Part shown: one piece after another, positions 1 to 54,987 of the stretch | Numbering within the stretch: position 1 is the first letter of the stretch | Layout: every line of letters begins with the position of its first letter | NCBI RefSeq assembly: GCF_004361065.1 | Contig: NZ_SELT01000014.1 | Span: 1 to 64,000, forward strand | Source of the DNA: Cognatilysobacter terrigena | Lineage (GTDB): Bacteria; Pseudomonadota; Gammaproteobacteria; Xanthomonadales; Xanthomonadaceae | Direction: 5' to 3' | DNA: 64,000 bases | Translations under genes and position numbers: made by a program | The notes under the pieces: model-generated | The model's input: the letters and a program-made list of their open reading frames with translations, nothing else | Told to the model about the DNA's origin: nothing | Database searches by the model: none

Positions 1-27
1 CGGCGTCGGCTTGGACGAATTGTTAGC
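1..27 (-). repeat. attC site, truncated by window edge
   Basis: This is the R'' side of an attC (on the - strand GCTAACAATTCGTCCAAGCC and onward), identical over its visible length to the complete copies to the right. It marks the end of the cassette whose gene lies at 1-420 and shows that the array continues beyond the window. Confidence 0.85.
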
Positions 28-420
28 TGCCAGCCGAGCTTCGTGCTTTTCGCCGAGACGCCAGCTTAGCCAGACCAGCCAGGCAATAGACAGGCCCCAA
101 GCAGCGAACTTCAAAATGGCACTACTTGGCGGGTCTTGAGAGTAGAACGTGAACGACACGGCTGCGCCACACACGGCGCCGAAAAGTGCTGCGATCCACC
201 AGCGGTCTAGCCTCAAACGGCGAGCTAGCAAGAGAGCGGGTAAGCCTATCGCTGCGACGATAGGCGCTGAGAACGCGTAAGTGACAAGGCTAATTGCTAA
301 GAAGACGCTTAGGGACTGATCAGTGCCGCTCAGAATGTCACGGCACGACAGAACTAGTGGCGGAATTGCCGGTGCAACGATGAAGCCGCCAAGTAGCCAC
401 AAGACGCGAATTTGTTTCAT
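1..420 (-). CDS. Integron cassette gene (partial): small multi-pass membrane protein
   Basis: An open frame starts at ATG 420-418 and runs off the left edge without a stop, giving 140 codons. It encodes an unknown membrane protein with hydrophobic segments near residues 7-25, 37-66, 74-92 and 101-120, followed by a polar tail. The ATG lies a few bases after the attC at 425-482, as is usual for cassette genes. The frame continues into the next attC (1-27), so the C-terminus becomes NNSSKPTP, the same tail as in the first cassette of the array. No family was recognised and the function is unknown. The frame is well supported by codon continuity and cassette position. Confidence 0.7.
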   Translation of the reverse strand, partial: MKQIRVLWLLGGFIVAPAIPPLVLSCRDILSGTDQSLSVFLAISLVTYAFSAPIVAAIGLPALLLARRLRLDRWWIAALFGAVCGAAVSFTFYSQDPPSSAILKFAAWGLSIAWLVWLSWRLGEKHEARLAANNSSKPTP

Positions 421-424
421 GGCA

Positions 425-482
425 GCTAACACCGAAGTTGACCCGCGCCGCGAAGCGGCGTCGGCTTGGACGAATTGTTAGC
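425..482 (-). repeat. attC site (variant)
   Basis: An integron recombination site of about 58 bp read on the - strand. It has the R'' core CTAAC, the L''/L' arms forming the hairpin GCCGACGCCGC-TTC-GCGGCGCGG, and the R' core GTTAGC. It differs from its siblings in the L'/R' side, reading GGGTCAACTTCGG where the others read GGCTTAACTCAGG or similar. The stop codon TAA of the cassette gene at 478-891 lies in its R'' box. Confidence 0.9.
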
Positions 483-891
483 TACCGCGCGTGCTCGGCT
501 GGATGCTCACGGAGCTGCCGGAACTACAGGCACTGTGAGGCGCTGCTCCGGCACTGATCGAGTTTATCGTTTGAAGGGAGAACTGCCCGGTCTTCTTGGC
601 AATGACCGCTACAACGACAGGCGGGCTACCCGGAAGATCGCGCAATTCGACGGCAAACCCCTGCGAGCGGACGTAACGTTCCAAATCGACTGTCGGCTTG
701 CCAGGAGGTAACCGCACTTCATATCCGAGTGTGACCGCTGCGCTCAGATCGGGCGCAGGACCGGCCCATGCGACGAATGGCGCGGCTGACGTGCACGTCC
801 GCTCCGCCTCTGCGGGAACCTGTGGCGATTGGCTCCGACTACAGCCTCCAAGACATATTGCGGCCAGTGCCGCAATGACGAGACAGCGCAT
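478..891 (-). CDS. Integron cassette gene: predicted lipoprotein of unknown function
   Basis: The product is 137 residues with a short signal peptide ending in a lipobox (LGGC, Cys17), so a membrane-anchored lipoprotein is predicted. ATG 891 is preferred over the upstream TTG at 906 because GGGAG lies 8-9 bases before it and the lipobox then sits at a normal distance. The mature part holds a few cysteines and no recognised domain. The TAA stop is supplied by the R'' box of the following attC, so the gene fills its cassette completely. The function is unknown. Confidence 0.75.
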   Translation of the reverse strand: MRCLVIAALAAICLGGCSRSQSPQVPAEAERTCTSAAPFVAWAGPAPDLSAAVTLGYEVRLPPGKPTVDLERYVRSQGFAVELRDLPGSPPVVVAVIAKKTGQFSLQTINSISAGAAPHSACSSGSSVSIQPSTRGS

Positions 892-911
892 GCAATCAAC
901 TCCCAAAGGCA

Positions 912-969
912 GCTAACACCTGAGTTAAGCCGCGCCGCGAAGCGGCGTCGGCTTGGACGAATTGTTAGG
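912..969 (-). repeat. attC site
   Basis: A complete integron attC on the - strand with R'' CTAAC, the same central hairpin as its siblings and R' GTTAGC. It separates the cassette genes at 978-1376 and 478-891. Confidence 0.92.
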
Positions 970-977
970 GCGCACCC

Positions 978-1376
978 TCATGGCGGCCCATAGAACGACA
1001 GCTCGATAGTTGCACCGAGGTCCGCGGCGAGACGGACCGCCTGGGCAGGGATGCTATAGCTTGGCCAAGGCCGATCTTCGGTTGCCAAATCATGCAGCCC
1101 GAAATCAATGACCACGGTGCGAAAGCCTAGCTCAGGGATGAGACTTAGGGTTGCACGGTGCTTCTTTGCGAACCGAACCGCGCCCTGAGCTTGTTTGAGG
1201 ATCCCTTCGGCGTCAGACAACTGGATGTTGAAGCCCGACTCCTGGACGTTACCCCTGCTTGCTGGCAGACGCGGCTCCCCCTTCCAGTACACACGCACGG
1301 GTTCCAGTTTCGACTCAGACAGAAAGCGGCGGACCTTCGCAGTCGATCCTGAAACCCGCAAAACGCATGAAGACAT
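978..1376 (-). CDS. Integron cassette gene: small cytosolic protein of unknown function
   Basis: The product is 132 residues without a signal peptide or membrane segment. It begins MSSCVLRVSG and ends ATIELSFYGPP, and reads like a compact alpha/beta protein. I have an impression of similar cassette-borne proteins but cannot name a family with confidence. The start lies 9 bases inside the cassette and the TGA stop falls just before the attC, so unlike its neighbours it does not borrow its stop from the recombination site. The function is unknown. Confidence 0.72.
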   Translation of the reverse strand: MSSCVLRVSGSTAKVRRFLSESKLEPVRVYWKGEPRLPASRGNVQESGFNIQLSDAEGILKQAQGAVRFAKKHRATLSLIPELGFRTVVIDFGLHDLATEDRPWPSYSIPAQAVRLAADLGATIELSFYGPP

Positions 1377-1384
1377 GTGTGCGC

Positions 1385-1442
1385 CCTAACACGTGAGTTA
1401 AGCCGCGCCGCGAAGCGGCGTCGGCTTGGACGAATTGTTAGC
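1385..1442 (-). repeat. attC site
   Basis: A complete integron attC on the - strand, with the same arms and hairpin as the other copies. Only the variable bases beside R' differ (CACGTGTTAGGG). It lies between the cassette genes at 1438-1821 and 978-1376. Confidence 0.92.
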
Positions 1443-1821
1443 GCCTTGAGGACTGCAACCGCACATGCGCCCTCTCGAATCTGCCCGCCGCGGTCAAGTT
1501 CATCTGGATAGCGTACCCGCGGCGGCGGCTGCCTGCCTGCTCCGTATCGAGGATGCACTCCAGAACAAGAGGCCGGATTTCCTTGCATGCATCGAAGTAG
1601 TAGCTGCTGGAGCCGCGGATGAGCACGCCTTTCAGTTGGCGATTCATGCCCCGCTCAATCTGAAGAGGCGTGTAGTAGCGGTAAGGGAAGCTGCTTGGAA
1701 GCCCGGCCGCCGCATAGACCAGCTGCCATGTGTTTTCACACGCACAAGGCATGGGCGAGTAGGCCAAGCTTGCACCGCCTATCGCCAGAGCGACTACAAG
1801 GGCTGAAACACTTCCATTCAT
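1438..1821 (-). CDS. Integron cassette gene: predicted exported protein of unknown function
   Basis: The product is 127 residues and starts with a hydrophobic segment (residues 5-21) that looks like a signal peptide, followed by PMPCACENTW. It is therefore probably exported. Several cysteines occur in the mature part (about residues 26, 28, 78 and 88), which could form disulfides. The TAA stop lies in the attC R'' box. No family was recognised. The start ATG lies five bases inside the cassette. Confidence 0.72.
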   Translation of the reverse strand: MNGSVSALVVALAIGGASLAYSPMPCACENTWQLVYAAAGLPSSFPYRYYTPLQIERGMNRQLKGVLIRGSSSYYFDACKEIRPLVLECILDTEQAGSRRRGYAIQMNLTAAGRFERAHVRLQSSRR

Positions 1822-1824
1822 GGC

Positions 1825-1882
1825 GCTAACACCTGAGTTAAGCCGCGCCGCGAAGCGGCGTCGGCTTGGACGAATTGTTAGC
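1825..1882 (-). repeat. attC site
   Basis: A complete integron attC on the - strand between the second and third cassettes counted from attI. The arms match the other copies, and R' reads GGTGTTAGCG. Confidence 0.92.
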
Positions 1883-2237
1883 TGCCATGCCCGTACACCA
1901 CGGAAGGACCGCCTTTGACACCCTCGGTCTCAGCGTAGAACCGCGAGCCATCATTGCCAACCACCAAGAGACCCTCACCTAAGCCAATCCGACGCTGTAG
2001 CGCGCCCCACGTGGTGGCTCGGAAGCCGCGGGAGTCTTCCAGCACTAGGCACGGGTCATCGCTGGAGAACCGTGCACGTTTCCCGGCGAAGGCTGACGGC
2101 AGTATCTCTTCGATGTTGTGGCAGATGCGCGAGTACAACCTCTCGGGGCGCTTCGAAGCTTCGTGGAGGAAGCGCTCGCGGAAACTAGCCACGACGTATC
2201 GCTGGGCAAATGCTTCGAGCGCTGACTTGCTGTCCAT
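1878..2237 (-). CDS. Integron cassette gene: cytosolic protein of unknown function
   Basis: The product is 119 residues, soluble, with a mixed charged/hydrophobic composition. It has a helical N-terminal half (YVVASFRERFLHEASKRPER) and a C-terminal half that reads as beta strands (GEGLLVVGNDGSRFYAET). No signal peptide is present. The stop TAA is provided by the attC R'' box. No family was recognised. This is the second cassette from attI, so it could be transcribed from an integron promoter if one is active. Confidence 0.72.
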   Translation of the reverse strand: MDSKSALEAFAQRYVVASFRERFLHEASKRPERLYSRICHNIEEILPSAFAGKRARFSSDDPCLVLEDSRGFRATTWGALQRRIGLGEGLLVVGNDGSRFYAETEGVKGGPSVVYGHGS

Positions 2238-2241
2238 CGCA

Positions 2242-2299
2242 GCTAACGCTTGAGTTAAGCCGCGCCGCGAAGCGGCGTCGGCTTGGACGAATTGTTAGG
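2242..2299 (-). repeat. attC site of the first cassette
   Basis: A complete attC read on the - strand as R'' GCCTAAC, the arms AATTCGTCCAAGCCGACGCC and GGCGCGGCTTAACTCAAGC, and R' GTTAGC. From memory it differs from the aadA1 cassette attC at only two or three positions. The gene of cassette 1 reads through it and stops at 2255. Confidence 0.93.
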
Positions 2300-2770
2300 C
2301 GGCGCACAGAGCTTCTGCAAGGCTTCCAATTGTTGGGCATGCAGATTCGACAGCGGACTAATTAGAAGCGCCTCCCTTCCGCCGGCTTCAAGCGCTGCCA
2401 GAGCAACCGCCGGATCGGAGTAGCGCTGAAGGACTGGCAGGCCGACCGCCTGGAACTCGGCGGCAAGCGCCCTTGCGGAATCTATCGCGGACGCGCGGGA
2501 AGAAACCGGATGGGGTGAATAGCCCGTGCCGGCAATGTTGGCCAGTTGCGCACCGATGATGGCAACTCTCTTTTTCATAGCCACGTACTCAACTGCAACG
2601 TCCCCGAGTGCGTCGAATGCGTCGGAGTAGTTCGCGAACGAAACGTGGAACAGCCAACGGACGTGCCCGTCGGTTCGCTTGAAGTGACGACTGCTCTTAA
2701 CGAACGTCCAGCCGGGCATAAGCTCCACCAGCTCGGAAATAAAAGCCGCATGTAGCTCAGATACTTTCAT
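2255..2770 (-). CDS. Integron cassette gene (first cassette): unknown protein with attC-encoded tail
   Basis: The product is 171 residues, soluble, with no recognised domain. The N-terminal part (residues 1-75) contains GWTFVKSSRHFKR and a hydrophobic strand region. The C-terminal part is alanine/leucine-rich and helical. The final residues, NNSSKPTPLRGAA, are encoded by the attC, and the TAA stop lies almost at its far end. ATG 2770 sits four bases from the attI/cassette junction at 2774-2780. Being first in the array, it is the cassette most likely to be expressed. The function is unknown. Confidence 0.72.
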   Translation of the reverse strand: MKVSELHAAFISELVELMPGWTFVKSSRHFKRTDGHVRWLFHVSFANYSDAFDALGDVAVEYVAMKKRVAIIGAQLANIAGTGYSPHPVSSRASAIDSARALAAEFQAVGLPVLQRYSDPAVALAALEAGGREALLISPLSNLHAQQLEALQKLCAPPNNSSKPTPLRGAA

Positions 2771-2773
2771 AGC

Positions 2774-2780
2774 CGCCTAA
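2774..2780 (-). other. attI/cassette recombination core (GTTAGGC)
   Basis: On the - strand the sequence ...CGGTGTTAGGCGGC occurs just before the first cassette gene and lacks the attC hairpin arms that mark the other junctions. Its left side is the start of a cassette, and the region to its right leads to the integrase gene, as expected for attI. The full extent of attI (IntI-binding sites) cannot be set by eye. Confidence 0.75.
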
Positions 2781-3084
2781 CACCGATTCTCTTGAATAAG
2801 CACAGCGGTAACCGCTCCGCAAGGAAGAAGGAGGCAGGCTCGGCCAGAAGTCTATTACGAAACAATAGTTTAGCTCTGGCCGCAGTGGCCCGTGACTTGG
2901 TCCGACTGTTTGGCGCGGCGTGCTCATCGGTAATCCGTTATCGCGGCGTCCGTGGAGGGGTAAGCGACGCCTCGCCGGCAGCGGAATTGTCCGACGCTCT
3001 ATTCGTCCATTGCCCTAGCGCACATAACGAAAACGTTCTGCACGATTGCCACCTCTTCTTGCAGTGCTGAGGACGCAACGTCGC
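2781..3084. other. attI-intI intergenic region
   Basis: About 300 bases lie between the first cassette and the integrase gene. The region should hold the rest of attI, the cassette promoter (leftward) and the integrase promoter (rightward). I see an AT-rich inverted repeat CTATT-N7-AATAG at 2852-2868 and AGCGGT-A-ACCGCT at 2804-2816. I cannot assign convincing -35/-10 boxes or a LexA box. Confidence 0.5.
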
Positions 3085-4356
3085 ATGGATGCGCTGGTAT
3101 CGCTTTACCGAAGCTTGGGTAGGCAGCTGGGACTTCGTGTCGCAGAGGACCCGCCGCCTGGAAGCAATCGCTATCGCTCCGGGGCCGGCGGGTGGCCCGA
3201 TACGCGTTCCCACTCGCCTCCGCGCTCGTCTGGAGCCAGCACGTCGACGCCGGGCTCGCGCGAAGTACCAGCGAGGAACCTGGCGGGTCGTCGGGACACG
3301 TCGCCCGGCGACGACGGCATCCACTGGCTGGGCGATGCTTATCGCGAAGATGCTGCACCCAGTGCAGGAACGAACCTCAGAACAGACGCAAGCCACGGAA
3401 AACGTCTGCTCGACCTCGTGCGAGAACGCGTGCGGGTTCGCCATTACAGCCTCCGCACCGAGCGTGCCTACGTCAGTTGGGTGCGACGCTTCATTCTCGC
3501 GAATGGCCGGCGGCATCCGCGCGAGCTGGGTGGTGCGGAGGTCGAGCGGTTCCTGACCGATCTCGCCGCACGCGACGACGTCGCGTCGGGTACGCAGAAC
3601 CAGGCGCTCGCTGCGCTGTTGTTTCTCTACCGCGAAGTTCTCGGCCTGAAGCTGCCGTGGATGCAGGACGTCGTGCGCGCGAAGCGGCCTCGGCGTATTC
3701 CCGTGGTGTTGTCGCGCGGCGAGATCGATCGGTTGCTCGGTGCGATGGATGGGCAGACGCGACTGATGGCGGCGCTGCTCTACGGCACGGGCATGCGCCT
3801 CATGGAATGCACGCGCCTGCGCGTCAAAGACGTTGATTTCGAGCGCTGCGAGATCGTGGTGCGGGAAGGGAAGGGCGACAAGGACCGCCGGGTGCCGCTG
3901 CCGCAGACGCTGCGGGAAGATCTGCGCCGCGCGATCGAACGGTCGATGTTGCTGCACCGCCATGATCTGGCGGAAGGATTCGGCGAGGCGCGTCTTCCCC
4001 ATGCACTGGCCAAGAAGTATCCGAATGCGGCGCGCGAGCCGGGTTGGCAGTTCGTATTTCCGTCCGCTCATAGATCGGTGGATCCTCGAACGAACAAGAC
4101 GCATCGTCACCATCTGGACGACAGCGCGCTGCAGCGCGCCGTGAAGCGTGCGCGTACGCTGGCGGGCATCACGAAGCCCGCGACCTGCCATACGCTGCGT
4201 CATTCGTTCGCGACGCACTTACTCGAGAGTGGGCAGGACATCCGCACCGTGCAGGAGCTGCTCGGCCACAAGGATCTCGGCACGACGCAGATCTATACGC
4301 ACGTGTTAGGACGTGGCGCGGGTGCGGTCCTGAGTCCGCTCGATCGTCAGTTCTGA
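3085..4356 (+). CDS. intI: Integron integrase IntI (tyrosine recombinase)
   Basis: It recombines attC sites with attI. From ATG 3085 the product is 423 residues. The conserved IntI core starts near residue 107 (KRLLDLVRERVRVRHYS). Patch I (LLYGTGMRLMECTRLR) holds the catalytic Arg. The IntI-specific insert (EGFGEARLPHALAKKYP, then HRHHLDDS) is present, as are HTLRHSF, LLGHKD and the nucleophile in TQIYTHV. It diverges from the cassettes, the normal integron layout. The oddity is an N-terminal extension of about 90 residues. There is no ATG, GTG or TTG in frame where IntI normally starts, while ATG codons exist there in another frame. The start is therefore uncertain, and a frameshift that splits the true N-terminus is possible. 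TTG 3046 is an alternative. Confidence 0.88.
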   Translation: MDALVSLYRSLGRQLGLRVAEDPPPGSNRYRSGAGGWPDTRSHSPPRSSGASTSTPGSREVPARNLAGRRDTSPGDDGIHWLGDAYREDAAPSAGTNLRTDASHGKRLLDLVRERVRVRHYSLRTERAYVSWVRRFILANGRRHPRELGGAEVERFLTDLAARDDVASGTQNQALAALLFLYREVLGLKLPWMQDVVRAKRPRRIPVVLSRGEIDRLLGAMDGQTRLMAALLYGTGMRLMECTRLRVKDVDFERCEIVVREGKGDKDRRVPLPQTLREDLRRAIERSMLLHRHDLAEGFGEARLPHALAKKYPNAAREPGWQFVFPSAHRSVDPRTNKTHRHHLDDSALQRAVKRARTLAGITKPATCHTLRHSFATHLLESGQDIRTVQELLGHKDLGTTQIYTHVLGRGAGAVLSPLDRQF

Positions 4357-8926: not shown

Positions 8927-9493
8927 TCAGCGCTGGCGTCGCCGCTCCGCCACCGCGCGACGGTGCAGGCGGAACAGATGCCGTTCGAGGAGGGCTTCGA
9001 GGCTTGCCGGCAAAGGATCGAAACGCAGCCAGGCGCGGGCGCCATCACTGCCGGTTTCGATCGCGAGCACGTGCGCCGGCAGCAGCAACGGTTCGGGCAG
9101 CGTGTCGGACGGCTGCAGGCGCAACACGACGGCGTCGCCGATCGCCGGCACTGTGTCGTCGCGCGTCATCGACACCGCGGCACCGCGCGCGGACCAGTCG
9201 AGCGGACGCACCGGATCGACAGGCTGGTCGCGTTGCATCAATGCGCCGACGAGGCCGACAAGAAGATCGACTTTCGCTTCGAGCCGGCGCACGGCCGGAT
9301 CGGTGCCGGGTTCGTCGGATTCCTCGCCGCGCGTTTCGTCGACGAGCGCGAGGGCGCGCATCAGCGCTTCGGCGCGTGCGAGCGCGGCGCGCTGGCGGGC
9401 TTCAGGTAGCGGCGGAAGGAGCGCGAGCGGCCGAGCGTCCTCGCTGGCGATCGCGTCGCCGAACAAGGAATCGCGCGCGGCCTCGGCGTTCAT
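8927..9493 (-). CDS. Non-canonical PilZ-domain protein in the fliST operon
   Basis: The 188 residues begin at ATG 9493, which overlaps the fliT-like stop. A long N-terminal helical region includes a heptad-like stretch (RRLEAKVDLLVGLVGALMQR). It is followed by a beta-rich domain with the second PilZ motif DWSARG (D/NxSxxG). The first c-di-GMP motif, RxxxR, is absent. This matches the tetrameric, non-binding PilZ type known from Xanthomonas, so it probably acts through protein contacts. Translational overlap with the FliT-like gene suggests a role in flagellar assembly or control. Confidence 0.75.
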   Translation of the reverse strand: MNAEAARDSLFGDAIASEDARPLALLPPLPEARQRAALARAEALMRALALVDETRGEESDEPGTDPAVRRLEAKVDLLVGLVGALMQRDQPVDPVRPLDWSARGAAVSMTRDDTVPAIGDAVVLRLQPSDTLPEPLLLPAHVLAIETGSDGARAWLRFDPLPASLEALLERHLFRLHRRAVAERRRQR

Positions 9494-9768
9494 CCGGCGA
9501 GGTAGGCCTTGATCGCACGGCCGTCGCGGCCCATGCGCTCGAGCGTGCGTTGCGCTTCGTCGCGCGCATCGCGCAGTTCCTCGATCAGCGCGCGCTGCGC
9601 CGCGAGCAGGTCGAGCCAGGATTCGCGGCAGCCCATTTCGGCATCGGTGCCGTTCTCGAAGGTGGCGCGTAAGGCGTTTTCGTGTTCGACCAGCAGCGCG
9701 TGGGCGCCGTCGAAATCGCTGTTGGCGATGCAGGTGCGGATCGCATCGGTCGGCAGGCCGACGGTCAT
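9490..9768 (-). CDS. fliT: FliT-like flagellar export chaperone
   Basis: The 92-residue helical protein is placed between fliS and the PilZ gene. FliT chaperones FliD and in enterics also affects FlhDC. ATG 9768 overlaps the fliS stop as ATGA, indicating coupled translation, and its own stop overlaps the next start. Sequence conservation in this family is low, so the name rests mainly on size, helical composition and position. Confidence 0.65.
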   Translation of the reverse strand: MTVGLPTDAIRTCIANSDFDGAHALLVEHENALRATFENGTDAEMGCRESWLDLLAAQRALIEELRDARDEAQRTLERMGRDGRAIKAYLAG

Positions 9769-10178
9769 GCGCCGGCTCCCGCAACGCGCGGTGCGGCGCC
9801 GGGTGCAATCGCGCTCCAGGCGGACTCGATGTCGGCGATCAGGCCGTCGCACTCGCGCAGCGCGCTCGTGTCGTTGGCGACGTTCGCCTCGAGCAGGCGA
9901 CGCTGGATGTAGTCGTAGAGCGCGAGCAGGTTCTGCGCGATCTCGCCGCCGGCTTCCATGTTCAGCGAGCCGGCGAGCGCGCCGACGATCGTCGAGGATT
10001 CGCTGATCGCCTGGCCCTTGCGGGCGATGTTGCCGGCGTCGATGCACGCGGCGGCGAGCTGCAGGCGCTCGCGCAGGCCGGTGAACATCAGCGCGACGAG
10101 GCGATGCGGATCGGCTTCGAGCACCGCGCTGGACACGGCGGTCTGTCGGTACTGGTTGGCGTAGGCGTGGATGCTCAT
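9765..10178 (-). CDS. fliS: Flagellin export chaperone FliS
   Basis: The 137 residues start with the family signature region (YANQYRQTAVSSAVLEADPH, then RLVALMFTGLRERLQ), which binds the flagellin C-terminus to prevent early polymerisation. The length is typical. The gene follows fliD by about 20 bases and overlaps the fliT-like gene by 4, so fliD-fliS-fliT-pilZ are probably one transcript from the sigma-28 promoter before fliD. Confidence 0.93.
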   Translation of the reverse strand: MSIHAYANQYRQTAVSSAVLEADPHRLVALMFTGLRERLQLAAACIDAGNIARKGQAISESSTIVGALAGSLNMEAGGEIAQNLLALYDYIQRRLLEANVANDTSALRECDGLIADIESAWSAIAPGAAPRVAGAGA

Positions 10179-10198
10179 GGCGGTGCTCGGTGCTTCGA

Positions 10199-11530
10199 TC
10201 AGGACGACAGCGACGACAACTGCTGCGAGAGATAGGTGCTCGTCGATTGCAGCTTGGTCACGAGTGCGTCGAGCGCGGTGAACTGCGTCCGGTACTGCGT
10301 GGTGAGCTGGTCGATGTGTACCTCGTAGTTATCGCGCTGCTTCTGCAGATCCTTGAGCTTTTTATTGAGACTATCGGTACGGCTGCTCAAAACGCTGCCC
10401 GTGCCGACCCACGAATCCATCGAACCGCGCAGCTGCTTGCCCAGCGCCGCGTTCGGTCCGAACAGCTTGCTGACCGCGCCGGGGTCCGCGGCGATGGCGG
10501 TGTCGAACTTCGCGCCGTCGAGCGTGAGCGAACCGTCGACGGCCGTCTTGAAGCCGAGCTTCGACAGGTCGCCGTACGCGCCGGAGACCATCGAGCGCAG
10601 TCCCTGCATGATCGAACGCGGCGTCGCGTCGCCCACCAGCGTGCCCGCGGTCTTGCCGTCGCTTCCAGCCTGCGTGAGCGAGCGCATCTGGCTGAGCGCC
10701 GTGTTGTAGGAGCTGACGAACACCAGCAGCGACGCCTTCAGCGAGCTGGCGTCGGTGGTGACGTCGAGCGAAGCCGGCGTGTTCGGCGTGGCCTTCGTCA
10801 GCGTGAGCGTGACGCCGTCGAGCGCGTCGCCGAGCGTGTTCGAGCTCGACGTGCGCAGCACGCCATCGATCTTCACCTGCGCGTCCTGGGCGGGCGCGAT
10901 CTGCGTGAGCGTGCCGCCGCTGGTAGCGAGCGCACCGAGGCCGCCATCGCCACCGGACGTCGTGATCGTGATCTGGCCGGCGCTGCCGGTTTTCGTCGCG
11001 GCGATCGTGAGCACGTCGCCGGCGTCGCCGTGCACGATGCTTGCGGTGACGCCCTTGTCGCCGGCCTTCGCGTTGATCGCATCGCGGATGCCCGCGAGCG
11101 TGCCGCTGCCGTCGGCGATGTCGATGTCGATCTGCGTGCCGCCGCCGACCTGCAGGCTCAGTCGGCCATAGCCGAGCTGCGTGGTCGCGTTGACCGGCGT
11201 CGACTGCAGCTTGTGCGCGGTCGCGAGCTTCTCGACGCTGATCGAATAGCTGCCGAGCTTCGCCGACGACGTCGCGCTCGCGGTGTAGCCGGCGTCGGTG
11301 GCGACGGTCGCCTTGCGGCCCGGAAGTGCGCCCTCCGCGTCGTAGCGCTTGATCGACGACTGCAGGCTCGACATCGCACTCGTGATCTGGCCGAACGCCG
11401 AGATCTCCGACTGCGTCGTCTTCTGGATGGCGTCGAGGCGCCGGTCGGTCGGCGCGCGCTCGGCTGCGATCAGCTGGCTGACGAGCGTGGTGACATCGAT
11501 CGAACCGCCTGTGCCGGAGACGCTGGCCAT
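10199..11530 (-). CDS. fliD: Flagellar filament cap protein FliD
   Basis: The 443 residues form the hook-associated protein 2 that caps the filament and folds incoming flagellin. The FliD_N region (SIDVTTLVSQLIAAERAPTD) and the C-terminal coiled coil (SSRTDSLNKKLKDLQKQRDN) are at the two ends. ATG 11530 has GGAGG upstream. A near-consensus sigma-28 promoter lies at 11573-11599, giving a leader of about 36 bases. This fits a late (class III) gene. Confidence 0.95.
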   Translation of the reverse strand: MASVSGTGGSIDVTTLVSQLIAAERAPTDRRLDAIQKTTQSEISAFGQITSAMSSLQSSIKRYDAEGALPGRKATVATDAGYTASATSSAKLGSYSISVEKLATAHKLQSTPVNATTQLGYGRLSLQVGGGTQIDIDIADGSGTLAGIRDAINAKAGDKGVTASIVHGDAGDVLTIAATKTGSAGQITITTSGGDGGLGALATSGGTLTQIAPAQDAQVKIDGVLRTSSSNTLGDALDGVTLTLTKATPNTPASLDVTTDASSLKASLLVFVSSYNTALSQMRSLTQAGSDGKTAGTLVGDATPRSIMQGLRSMVSGAYGDLSKLGFKTAVDGSLTLDGAKFDTAIAADPGAVSKLFGPNAALGKQLRGSMDSWVGTGSVLSSRTDSLNKKLKDLQKQRDNYEVHIDQLTTQYRTQFTALDALVTKLQSTSTYLSQQLSSLSS

Positions 11531-54849: not shown

Positions 54850-54912
54850 GGATTGCTCCGTTCAGGAGTCCAGAAGGACTCGCGTCAAACGGGCGCCGTT
54901 GCAGGAAAACCG

Positions 54913-54977
54913 TGCCGAGCCTGATTCCGGTGTGACACCACGCCTGACGGCGGCCGGACTTGCAGCGCCCCTCGGCA
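54913..54977 (-). ncRNA. SAH riboswitch upstream of ahcY
   Basis: On the - strand TGCCGAGGGGCGCTGCAAG at the 5' side and ATCAGGCTCGGCA at the 3' side enclose a variable hairpin. They match the conserved core of the SAH riboswitch (CCGAGGRGCGYUGCR ... YCAGGCUCGG). In this class SAH binding turns on ahcY. The position in the ahcY leader and the upstream -10 box agree. Confidence 0.9.
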
Positions 54978-54987
54978 GGGCCCGCGA

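What the first reader, a model, noticed from the sequence alone, without database searches (positions are those of the whole stretch)
1..4356. Chromosomal integron with attC sites nearly identical to those of aadA resistance cassettes
Five complete attC sites and one partial attC, about 58 bp each, separate at least six cassettes running away from an intI gene. Seen: the arms AATTCGTCCAAGCCGACGCC and GGCGCGGCTTAACTCA are shared by almost all copies. From memory, the aadA1 attC differs at only two or three bases from the first copy. Xanthomonad chromosomal integrons are thought to be sources of mobile resistance cassettes; such a close match in a chromosomal array with unrelated genes supports exchange between the two pools.
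Basis: partly seen in the sequence, partly recalled or inferred. Interest (0 to 1): 0.75.

Follow-up and report, generated by a model that had tools for sequence, protein, structure and literature searches.

The report
Chromosomal integron with resistance-type attC sites
A chromosomal integron in a relative of Lysobacter has cassette recombination sites that match, base for base in two copies, the site of the aadB antibiotic-resistance cassette, so the chromosomal and the resistance cassette pools can likely exchange genes, as related genomes holding whole aadA resistance cassettes in such arrays suggest.

Summary
Observation confirmed. The window starts inside a chromosomal integron: an intact intI (+), then cassettes on the minus strand with five complete 54-base attC cores and one cut at the contig end. 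The array continues on contigs C46 and C49, at least 16 cassettes in all. The match is closer than stated: window 2244-2297 differs from the aadA1 attC at 1 of 54 bases; 914-967 and 1827-1880 equal the aadB attC. It is no class 1 integron: the integrase is 55% identical to IntI1 and 88-91% to three Cognatilysobacter ones, at a shared chromosomal position. The attC type is taxon-linked: 64 of 398 genomes of the order (own included) carry it within 3 mismatches, against 1 of 364 elsewhere in the class. Exchange is better shown in relatives: an aadA2 cassette (858 of 861 bases) sits at the attI box beside a Lysobacteraceae integrase. Direction is inferred. The attC link has been in print since 2021 (PMC8352920). 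Apparently new: this integrase has a conserved N-terminal head on a roughly 85-residue tether, missed by some public gene starts.

The parts
3085..4356 (+). intI, integron integrase, 423 aa from the likely ATG at 3085
   Evidence: TIGR02249 integron integrase 490 bits, cut-off 265; residues aligned with IntI1 positions 146, 171, 277, 280, 303, 312 all the same as in IntI1 (that these are the catalytic positions is recalled); start from conservation
3085..3150 (+). conserved N-terminal head of the integrase, MDALVSLYRSLGRQLGLRVAED
   Evidence: in frame upstream of intI in L011, L012, L013 (31-39 bits), at most 2.5 bits in 69 other loci; dN below dS in 6 of 6 pairs
3151..3405 (+). variable Gly/Ala/Arg/Pro-rich tether between head and integrase core, predicted disordered
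   Evidence: composition; pLDDT 30-36 in blocks of ten
2775..2781 (-). attI crossover box GTTAGGC at the start of the first cassette
   Evidence: sequence; inferred from position and the recalled consensus
2255..2770 (-). cassette 1 ORF, 171 aa, ends inside its attC with the tail NNSSKPTPLRGAA
   Evidence: no NCBIfam, Pfam or PADLOC family
2244..2297 (-). attC 1, one base from the aadA1 attC
1878..2237 (-). cassette 2 ORF, 119 aa, unknown function
1827..1880 (-). attC 2, identical to the aadB attC over 54 bases
1438..1821 (-). cassette 3 ORF, 127 aa, unknown function
1387..1440 (-). attC 3, one base from the aadB attC
978..1376 (-). cassette 4 ORF, 132 aa, unknown function
914..967 (-). attC 4, identical to the aadB attC over 54 bases
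478..906 (-). cassette 5 ORF, 142 aa, looks like a lipoprotein by its N-terminus (judged by eye)
427..480 (-). attC 5, the most diverged complete site in the window (4 edits from aadB)
26..420 (-). cassette 6 ORF (runs into the attC cut by the contig end), membrane-like by eye; DUF2834 below its cut-off
1..25 (-). partial attC 6, cut by the contig end
4678..7959 (-). chromosomal flank: sigma-54-dependent regulator, response regulator, rpoN
   Evidence: rpoN above the TIGR02395 cut-off; the two regulators match families below their cut-offs; collinear with L012 and L013

Best explanation
This is a sedentary chromosomal integron of a Lysobacteraceae bacterium, with an intact integrase gene and a cassette array whose attC sites are the same type as, and in two window copies identical to, the attC of mobile resistance cassettes, so its integrase would likely take up and release such cassettes. 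Mechanism (inferred from known integrons): IntI recombines the folded bottom strand of attC with attI, inserting each new cassette next to intI. Because Lysobacteraceae integrases presumably act on this attC type, cassettes such as aadB and aadA would carry a passport valid both in these chromosomes and, through IntI1, in class 1 integrons. Shown here: the anatomy, the site identity, the taxonomic bias of the site type, and aadA1, aadA2 and aadA16 cassettes in arrays that hold this site type in related genomes. Inferred: activity of this integrase, and the direction of flow (probably both ways: an old Lysobacteraceae pool of sites, with recent returns of resistance cassettes).
For: Anatomy. 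Site identity: aadB 0 and aadA1 1 of 54. Model from this array only: the seven short mobile sites score 69-89 bits; chromosomal loci above 50 bits are 5 of 10 Lysobacteraceae and 0 of 70 others, best 47.7. Whole genomes, 3 or fewer mismatches: 64 of 398 in the order, own genome included (50 of 129 in the own family, 14 of 269 in others, by my count of the rows), 1 of 364 outside it. Chromosomal and vertical. Exchange in relatives: G365 aadA2 cassette 858 of 861 bases, at the attI box of an integron with a Lysobacteraceae integrase; G155 aadA1 cassette 860 of 861; G353 aadA16 cassette 866 of 872. Published assignment of aadA1a, aadA2, aadA6, aadB and catB3 to Xanthomonadales (PMC8352920, passages).
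Against: No resistance gene was recognised among the cassette proteins tested. The aadB protein itself was found in 0 of 398 genomes of the order (the positive control worked), so for the exact site match no chromosomal gene source is known. One genome outside the order (G619) has an aadA gene 92% identical to aadA1 with an attC 1 edit from aadA1's beside a non-class-1 integrase, and G658 has such an attC too: the type is not exclusive. Of the 11 loci nearest in integrase, L011, L013, L014 and L021 show no site of this type; three of them hold little sequence before intI, but L013 (L. xinjiangensis) holds 10 kb. No sigma-70-like promoter was found between intI and cassette 1. Integrase activity untested.
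Confidence: 0.9

Rival explanations
1. Lysobacteraceae are recipients only: this attC type arose elsewhere, spread with mobile integrons, and chromosomal arrays copied it.
For: In G365 and G155 the aadA cassette is the one next to attI or an attI-like sequence, the newest position, with 99.65-99.9% identity to plasmid copies; G151 even has class 1 qacE-delta-1 and sul1 next to such an array. G619 and G658 of other orders have the type too.
Against: The type occurs in 27 of 99 genera searched in the order with many variants; the cassettes of this array share nothing but attC with 11 named relatives; the integrases of G365 and G231, which neighbour it, are Lysobacteraceae. A divergent aadA relative (72% to aadA1, 81-82% to aadA6 and aadA16) sits in an integrase-bearing array, G030.
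Confidence: 0.15
2. The sites resemble each other by convergence, because short attC hairpins are constrained by integrase recognition.
For: attC recombination depends on folded structure more than on sequence (recalled), and the stem is GC-rich and simple.
Against: Identity covers the unpaired parts as well (54 of 54), while integrons of other lineages use clearly different sites (0 of 70 loci above 50 bits); other mobile sites point elsewhere, e.g. the qacG2 attC is 2 edits from a site in Stutzerimonas stutzeri.
Confidence: 0.03
3. The window holds a mobile (class 1-like or transposon-borne) integron inserted in the chromosome.
For: The attC sites look like those of resistance cassettes; the left side of the array lies on other contigs and its flank could not be placed.
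Against: 55% identity to IntI1 and no sul1 or qacE-delta-1 hit in the window; intI is followed by the same genes in three other species and, in part, a MAG.
Confidence: 0.02

Closest known systems
Xanthomonadales-type attC sites of Ghaly, Tetu and Gillings 2021 (PMC8352920)
   Same: Same taxon; mobile cassettes named there (aadA1a, aadA2, aadA6, aadB, catB3) are among those that match this array here.
   Different: Here a single array has copies identical to aadB's site; and whole aadA1, aadA2 and aadA16 cassettes are seen in arrays of relatives, whereas the passages read report only catB3, qacI and qnrVC1 in chromosomes (98% identity or more, complete chromosomes).
Xanthomonas chromosomal integrons downstream of ilvD (Colombi et al. 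2025, PMC12444791)
   Same: Sedentary, mostly vertically kept integron of the same family, all attC sites of Xanthomonadales type.
   Different: Here intI lies beside a sigma-54-dependent regulator and rpoN, with an integrase carrying a long N-terminal leader.
Class 1 integron with aadA or aadB cassettes
   Same: attC sites of aadB and aadA1 (0 and 1 base of 54).
   Different: Integrase 55% identical; no 3' conserved segment genes; chromosomal.

Membership tests
Sedentary chromosomal integron | integron integrase family with catalytic residues | tested here: met
   TIGR02249 490 bits; residues
Sedentary chromosomal integron | array of cassettes with near-uniform attC sites, read away from intI | tested here: met
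Sedentary chromosomal integron | same chromosomal position in relatives, no mobile element | tested here: inconclusive
   right flank shared with four relatives (met); the left flank (C49 end) had no match in the 11 loci, so that side is open
Sedentary chromosomal integron | recombination activity | not testable with these tools
   needs an assay
Xanthomonadales-type attC | scores with the taxon's published covariance model | not tested
   the published models are not at hand; an own model from this array was used
Xanthomonadales-type attC | sequence type concentrated in the order | tested here: met
   64 of 398 against 1 of 364
Class 1 (mobile) integron | IntI1 itself and a 3' conserved segment (definition recalled) | tested here: not met
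   55% identity, no qacE-delta-1 or sul1 hit
Canonical IntI (IntI1; IntI4 of 2a3v) | short leader (14 residues in IntI1) before the core | tested here: not met
   about 105 residues here; 2a3v matches residues 105-421 only

The most novel reading that the evidence does not exclude
This integron is driven by an undescribed subfamily of integron integrases that carry a conserved N-terminal helix (MDALVxxYRxxGxxLGLRxxED) on a long disordered tether, a docking module that no characterised integrase is known to have and that some public gene starts cut off. Such platforms, with attC sites identical to those of resistance cassettes, could be an active two-way gate between chromosomal and resistance cassette pools.
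Probability: 0.5. Interest if true: 0.55.

Novelty: new member of a known kind. Interest (0 to 1): 0.45.

Why it matters
Where resistance cassettes come from is an open question. A chromosomal array with sites equal to aadB's base for base, together with a relative that holds aadA2 at the attI box of a Lysobacteraceae integron, makes the exchange between environmental chromosomes and mobile resistance integrons directly testable with natural parts. The extended integrase, if its leader matters, would be a new handle on how integrases are assembled or regulated.

Tried and rejected
Tried and rejected or set aside. (1) Sigma-70 promoter scan between cassette 1 and intI: 0 found, one weak terminator-like site at 2804-2816; a LexA-type motif scan of 2761-3420 printed nothing; inconclusive, since other promoter types are not covered. 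(2) Nucleotide similarity of the array to the 11 relatives nearest in integrase: only attC sites and intI match. (3) The aadB gene in the order: 0 of 398. (4) Phage records with an attC of C49: 2 records at 80-90% identity, a P1 and a Salmonella record, not followed. (5) Search of the integrase leader alone (residues 1-110) against the protein database: 616 candidates, none at E 0.01 or better, although the full-length search and alignment show it. (6) Amphipathic character of the head: in 18 of 20 rows more than a tenth of shuffles do as well, so not claimed. (7) Structure prediction of the whole integrase: low confidence (mean pLDDT 53.8, pTM 0.30), so no fold search was made. (8) Covariation within the 14 sites is uninformative: they vary too little (82 of 500 shuffles reach the observed values). 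(9) My first attC finder was too strict and found one own site; the second missed two window copies (1387, 2244) and three on C46, so its distances for the own array are superseded.

Dropped rows and bias: the integrase tree used 31 of the 80 named loci plus 6 others; the leader test used 72 of 80 named loci plus the window, the other 8 having under 320 bases before intI. The plasmid loci were chosen from hits to the window's attC or array, so they are biased toward this type; 10 records were fetched. The leader profile contains one database row (P0016) that is nearly the same as L013's leader, so that L013's score is not fully independent.
Full report
What is there. The window is contig C14 of a 3.22 Mb draft genome in 88 contigs and begins at the contig end. 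On the plus strand lies an integron integrase gene (TIGR02249, 490 bits against a cut-off of 265). To its left, read away from it on the minus strand, are five complete attC sites and a sixth cut by the contig end, each following a different ORF. By my reading six cassettes lie in the window, seven on contig C46 and four on C49, the last with a degenerate attC, so I count at least 16 (the order of the contigs is inferred). The C49 end, with a GFA-domain and a glyoxalase-like gene, looks like the distal end of the array. Of the six window cassette proteins, five were tested against NCBIfam (none matched) and six against Pfam (none above a cut-off); none of nine cassette proteins tested has a PADLOC family. 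On C46 and C49 an L,D-transpeptidase and an HNH endonuclease stand out. No resistance gene was recognised in the proteins tested.

How close the sites are. The attC core is 54 bases. Two window copies (914-967 and 1827-1880) and one on C46 are identical to the attC of aadB on a Pseudomonas aeruginosa plasmid; window 2244-2297 differs from the aadA1 attC of E. coli plasmid p1658/97 at one base; the nearest of the 14 own sites lie 3, 5, 4, 7 and 7 edits from the attC of aadA6, aadA16, qacL, catB3 and aadA2 (plasmid stretches).

Is it lineage-specific? I fetched the 80 best chromosomal relatives of the integrase: 10 Lysobacteraceae, one unclassified gammaproteobacterial MAG and 69 others. For each of the seven short mobile sites the lowest edit distance in this set (0-8) is in L012, L018, L019 or L020, all Lysobacteraceae; the best outside the family is one Pseudomonas (L087, 8-14 edits), the rest 14 or more. 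The test discriminates: the qacG2 attC is nearest Stutzerimonas stutzeri (2 edits), while the 106-base aac(6')-Il attC is nearest Lysobacter spongiicola (4 edits). A covariance model made only from this genome's 14 sites scores the seven mobile sites 69-89 bits, and among the 80 loci exceeds 50 bits in 5 of 10 Lysobacteraceae and in 0 of the 70 others (best 47.7). In whole genomes, the aadB-identical core with up to 3 mismatches occurs in 64 of 398 genomes of the order, the own one included (50 of 129 in the own family by my count of the rows, 14 of 269 in the other families), and in 1 of 364 genomes of other orders of the class; the reversed control pattern gave none. The single outside genome, G658, has the site between two cassette-like genes.

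Chromosomal, not mobile. The integrase is 91% identical to that of Lysobacter (now Cognatilysobacter) lacus and groups with L. lacus, L. segetis, L. xinjiangensis and a MAG at 100/100 support, inside a clade of Lysobacteraceae plus one unclassified MAG at 97/93 (genus name). The genes right of intI, a sigma-54-dependent regulator, a response regulator and rpoN, follow intI in L012 and L013 over more than 7.5 kb at 81% identity, and partly in L011 and L014. IntI1 is 55% identical; sul1 and qacE-delta-1 have no hit in the window. The left flank could not be placed: the C49 end matches none of the 11 loci.

Do cassettes really cross? The window does not show it; relatives do. The aadA1 protein has matches in 16 of 398 genomes of the order, three of them weak. 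Six are 72% identical or more. G365: an aadA2 cassette (99.6% protein; 858 of 861 bases) begins exactly at the attI box of an integron whose integrase is Lysobacteraceae by the tree, and ten more attC sites within 8 edits of this type follow. G155: an aadA1 cassette (100% protein, 860 of 861 bases) on a single-contig chromosome, first in an array with sites of this type, after an attI-like sequence; no integrase hit within about 9 kb on either side. G353: a cassette 866 of 872 bases identical to aadA16, on an 8.4 kb contig with mixed sites. G030: an aadA relative (72% to aadA1, 82% to aadA16) in an integrase-bearing array, with an attC one edit from that of aadA6. G151: aadA2 with class 1 qacE-delta-1 and sul1, then sites 3-5 edits from this type. 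G359: 75%, with sites 5-12 edits away. The other seven clear matches (40-68%) have no site of this type within the 20 kb fetched. Against a taxon-only story, G619 from another order carries an aadA gene 92% identical to aadA1 with an attC one edit away, beside an integrase 55% identical to IntI1, and elsewhere a class 1 integrase; it is the only one of 364 genomes outside the order with an aadA match above 40% over most of the protein. The aadB protein was found in 0 of 398 (control). So exchange is well supported, while direction is inferred: the attI-proximal, nearly identical cassettes look like recent arrivals; the breadth of the site type in the family looks old.

The integrase leader. 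Some public gene starts lie near the core (316-320 aa; P0014, P0015, P0018), while others run to 416-432 aa (for example P0001 to P0008). In the window the frame runs upstream to an ATG at 3085, giving 423 aa. The first 22 residues (MDALVSLYRSLGRQLGLRVAED) recur in similar form, in frame and beginning with ATG, upstream of intI in L011, L012 and L013. A profile of this head, built from 19 database proteins and the window, scores those three at 31-39 bits and no other of 69 loci above 2.5; dN is below dS in all six pairs (only 26 codons, so rough). Of the 120 database homologues listed (of 7303 found), 27 have leaders of 60 residues or more and 21 of these carry the head at 8 bits or more, 19 of them by construction of the profile. 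The structure prediction shows a helix at residues 2-14 with modest confidence and no structure at 16-105. The solved integron integrase 2a3v aligns only from residue 105 on. Two literature searches found no description: the one paper holding both terms (PMC3414803, passages read) speaks of extensions in other recombinases, and the two papers were seen as listings only. The function is unknown; a docking helix on a flexible tether is my guess.

What is known. Ghaly, Tetu and Gillings 2021 (PMC8352920; abstract, outline and passages read) modelled chromosomal attC sites and assigned 19 of 108 resistance cassettes to Xanthomonadales, among them aadA1a, aadA2, aadA6, aadB and catB3, and found catB3 and qacI in Lysobacter oculi. 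Colombi et al. 2025 (PMC12444791; passages read) describe Xanthomonas integrons, mostly beside ilvD, with only Xanthomonadales-type sites. Six integron searches in all (seen as listings apart from these two papers) listed no title or abstract start that reports the exact aadB match or aadA cassettes at a Lysobacteraceae attI; full texts of the others were not read, and the library lacks most subscription journals. The finding is thus a good new member of a known kind, with a stronger site identity and clearer exchange examples than I found in print, plus one apparently undescribed trait of its integrase.

Noticed in passing
window 2255-2770 and 26-420; L009:518-973, 1444-1935, 2251-2655; L010:15-482: Cassette ORFs that enter attC in one frame end with the same attC-encoded tail (NNSSKPTPLRGAA or a near variant; the one at the contig end is cut), at six of the 15 sites scanned; ORFs in another frame stop at the TAA of the first attC box. 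Whether the shared tail has a function is unknown.
   Followed up: partly
window 3085-3405; L011:369, L012:1306, L013:9785: Conserved N-terminal head and disordered tether of the integrase, cut off in some public gene starts.
   Followed up: yes
L152 (G151), about 9034-11389 then 11689 on: A class 1 segment (aadA2, qacE-delta-1, sul1; 99.66% identical over 2356 bases to a plasmid) lies directly beside attC sites of this type, as if the two kinds of integron had fused; a misassembly is not excluded.
   Followed up: partly
L174 and L175 (G619): A genome of another order carries two aadA genes (92% and 57% to aadA1) beside a non-class-1 integrase and, elsewhere, a class 1 integrase with an aadA2-like gene (86% to aadA1).
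   Followed up: partly
L178 (G231), 9847-10134: A qacE-like cassette gene (74% over 96 residues) in a Lysobacteraceae array; possibly the Lysobacter oculi case already published, not checked.
   Followed up: no
L020: Pseudoxanthomonas broegbernensis array with 16 sites within 8 edits of the mobile ones, one identical to the attC of aadA6.
   Followed up: no
L013, left of intI: Lysobacter xinjiangensis keeps the integrase, but no site of this type lies within 10 kb: perhaps an integron that has lost its cassettes.
   Followed up: no
window 54884-54979, minus strand: SAH riboswitch, 58 bits.
   Followed up: no
L067: The integrase of a Stutzerimonas nitrititolerans integron has an internal stop codon.
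   Followed up: no
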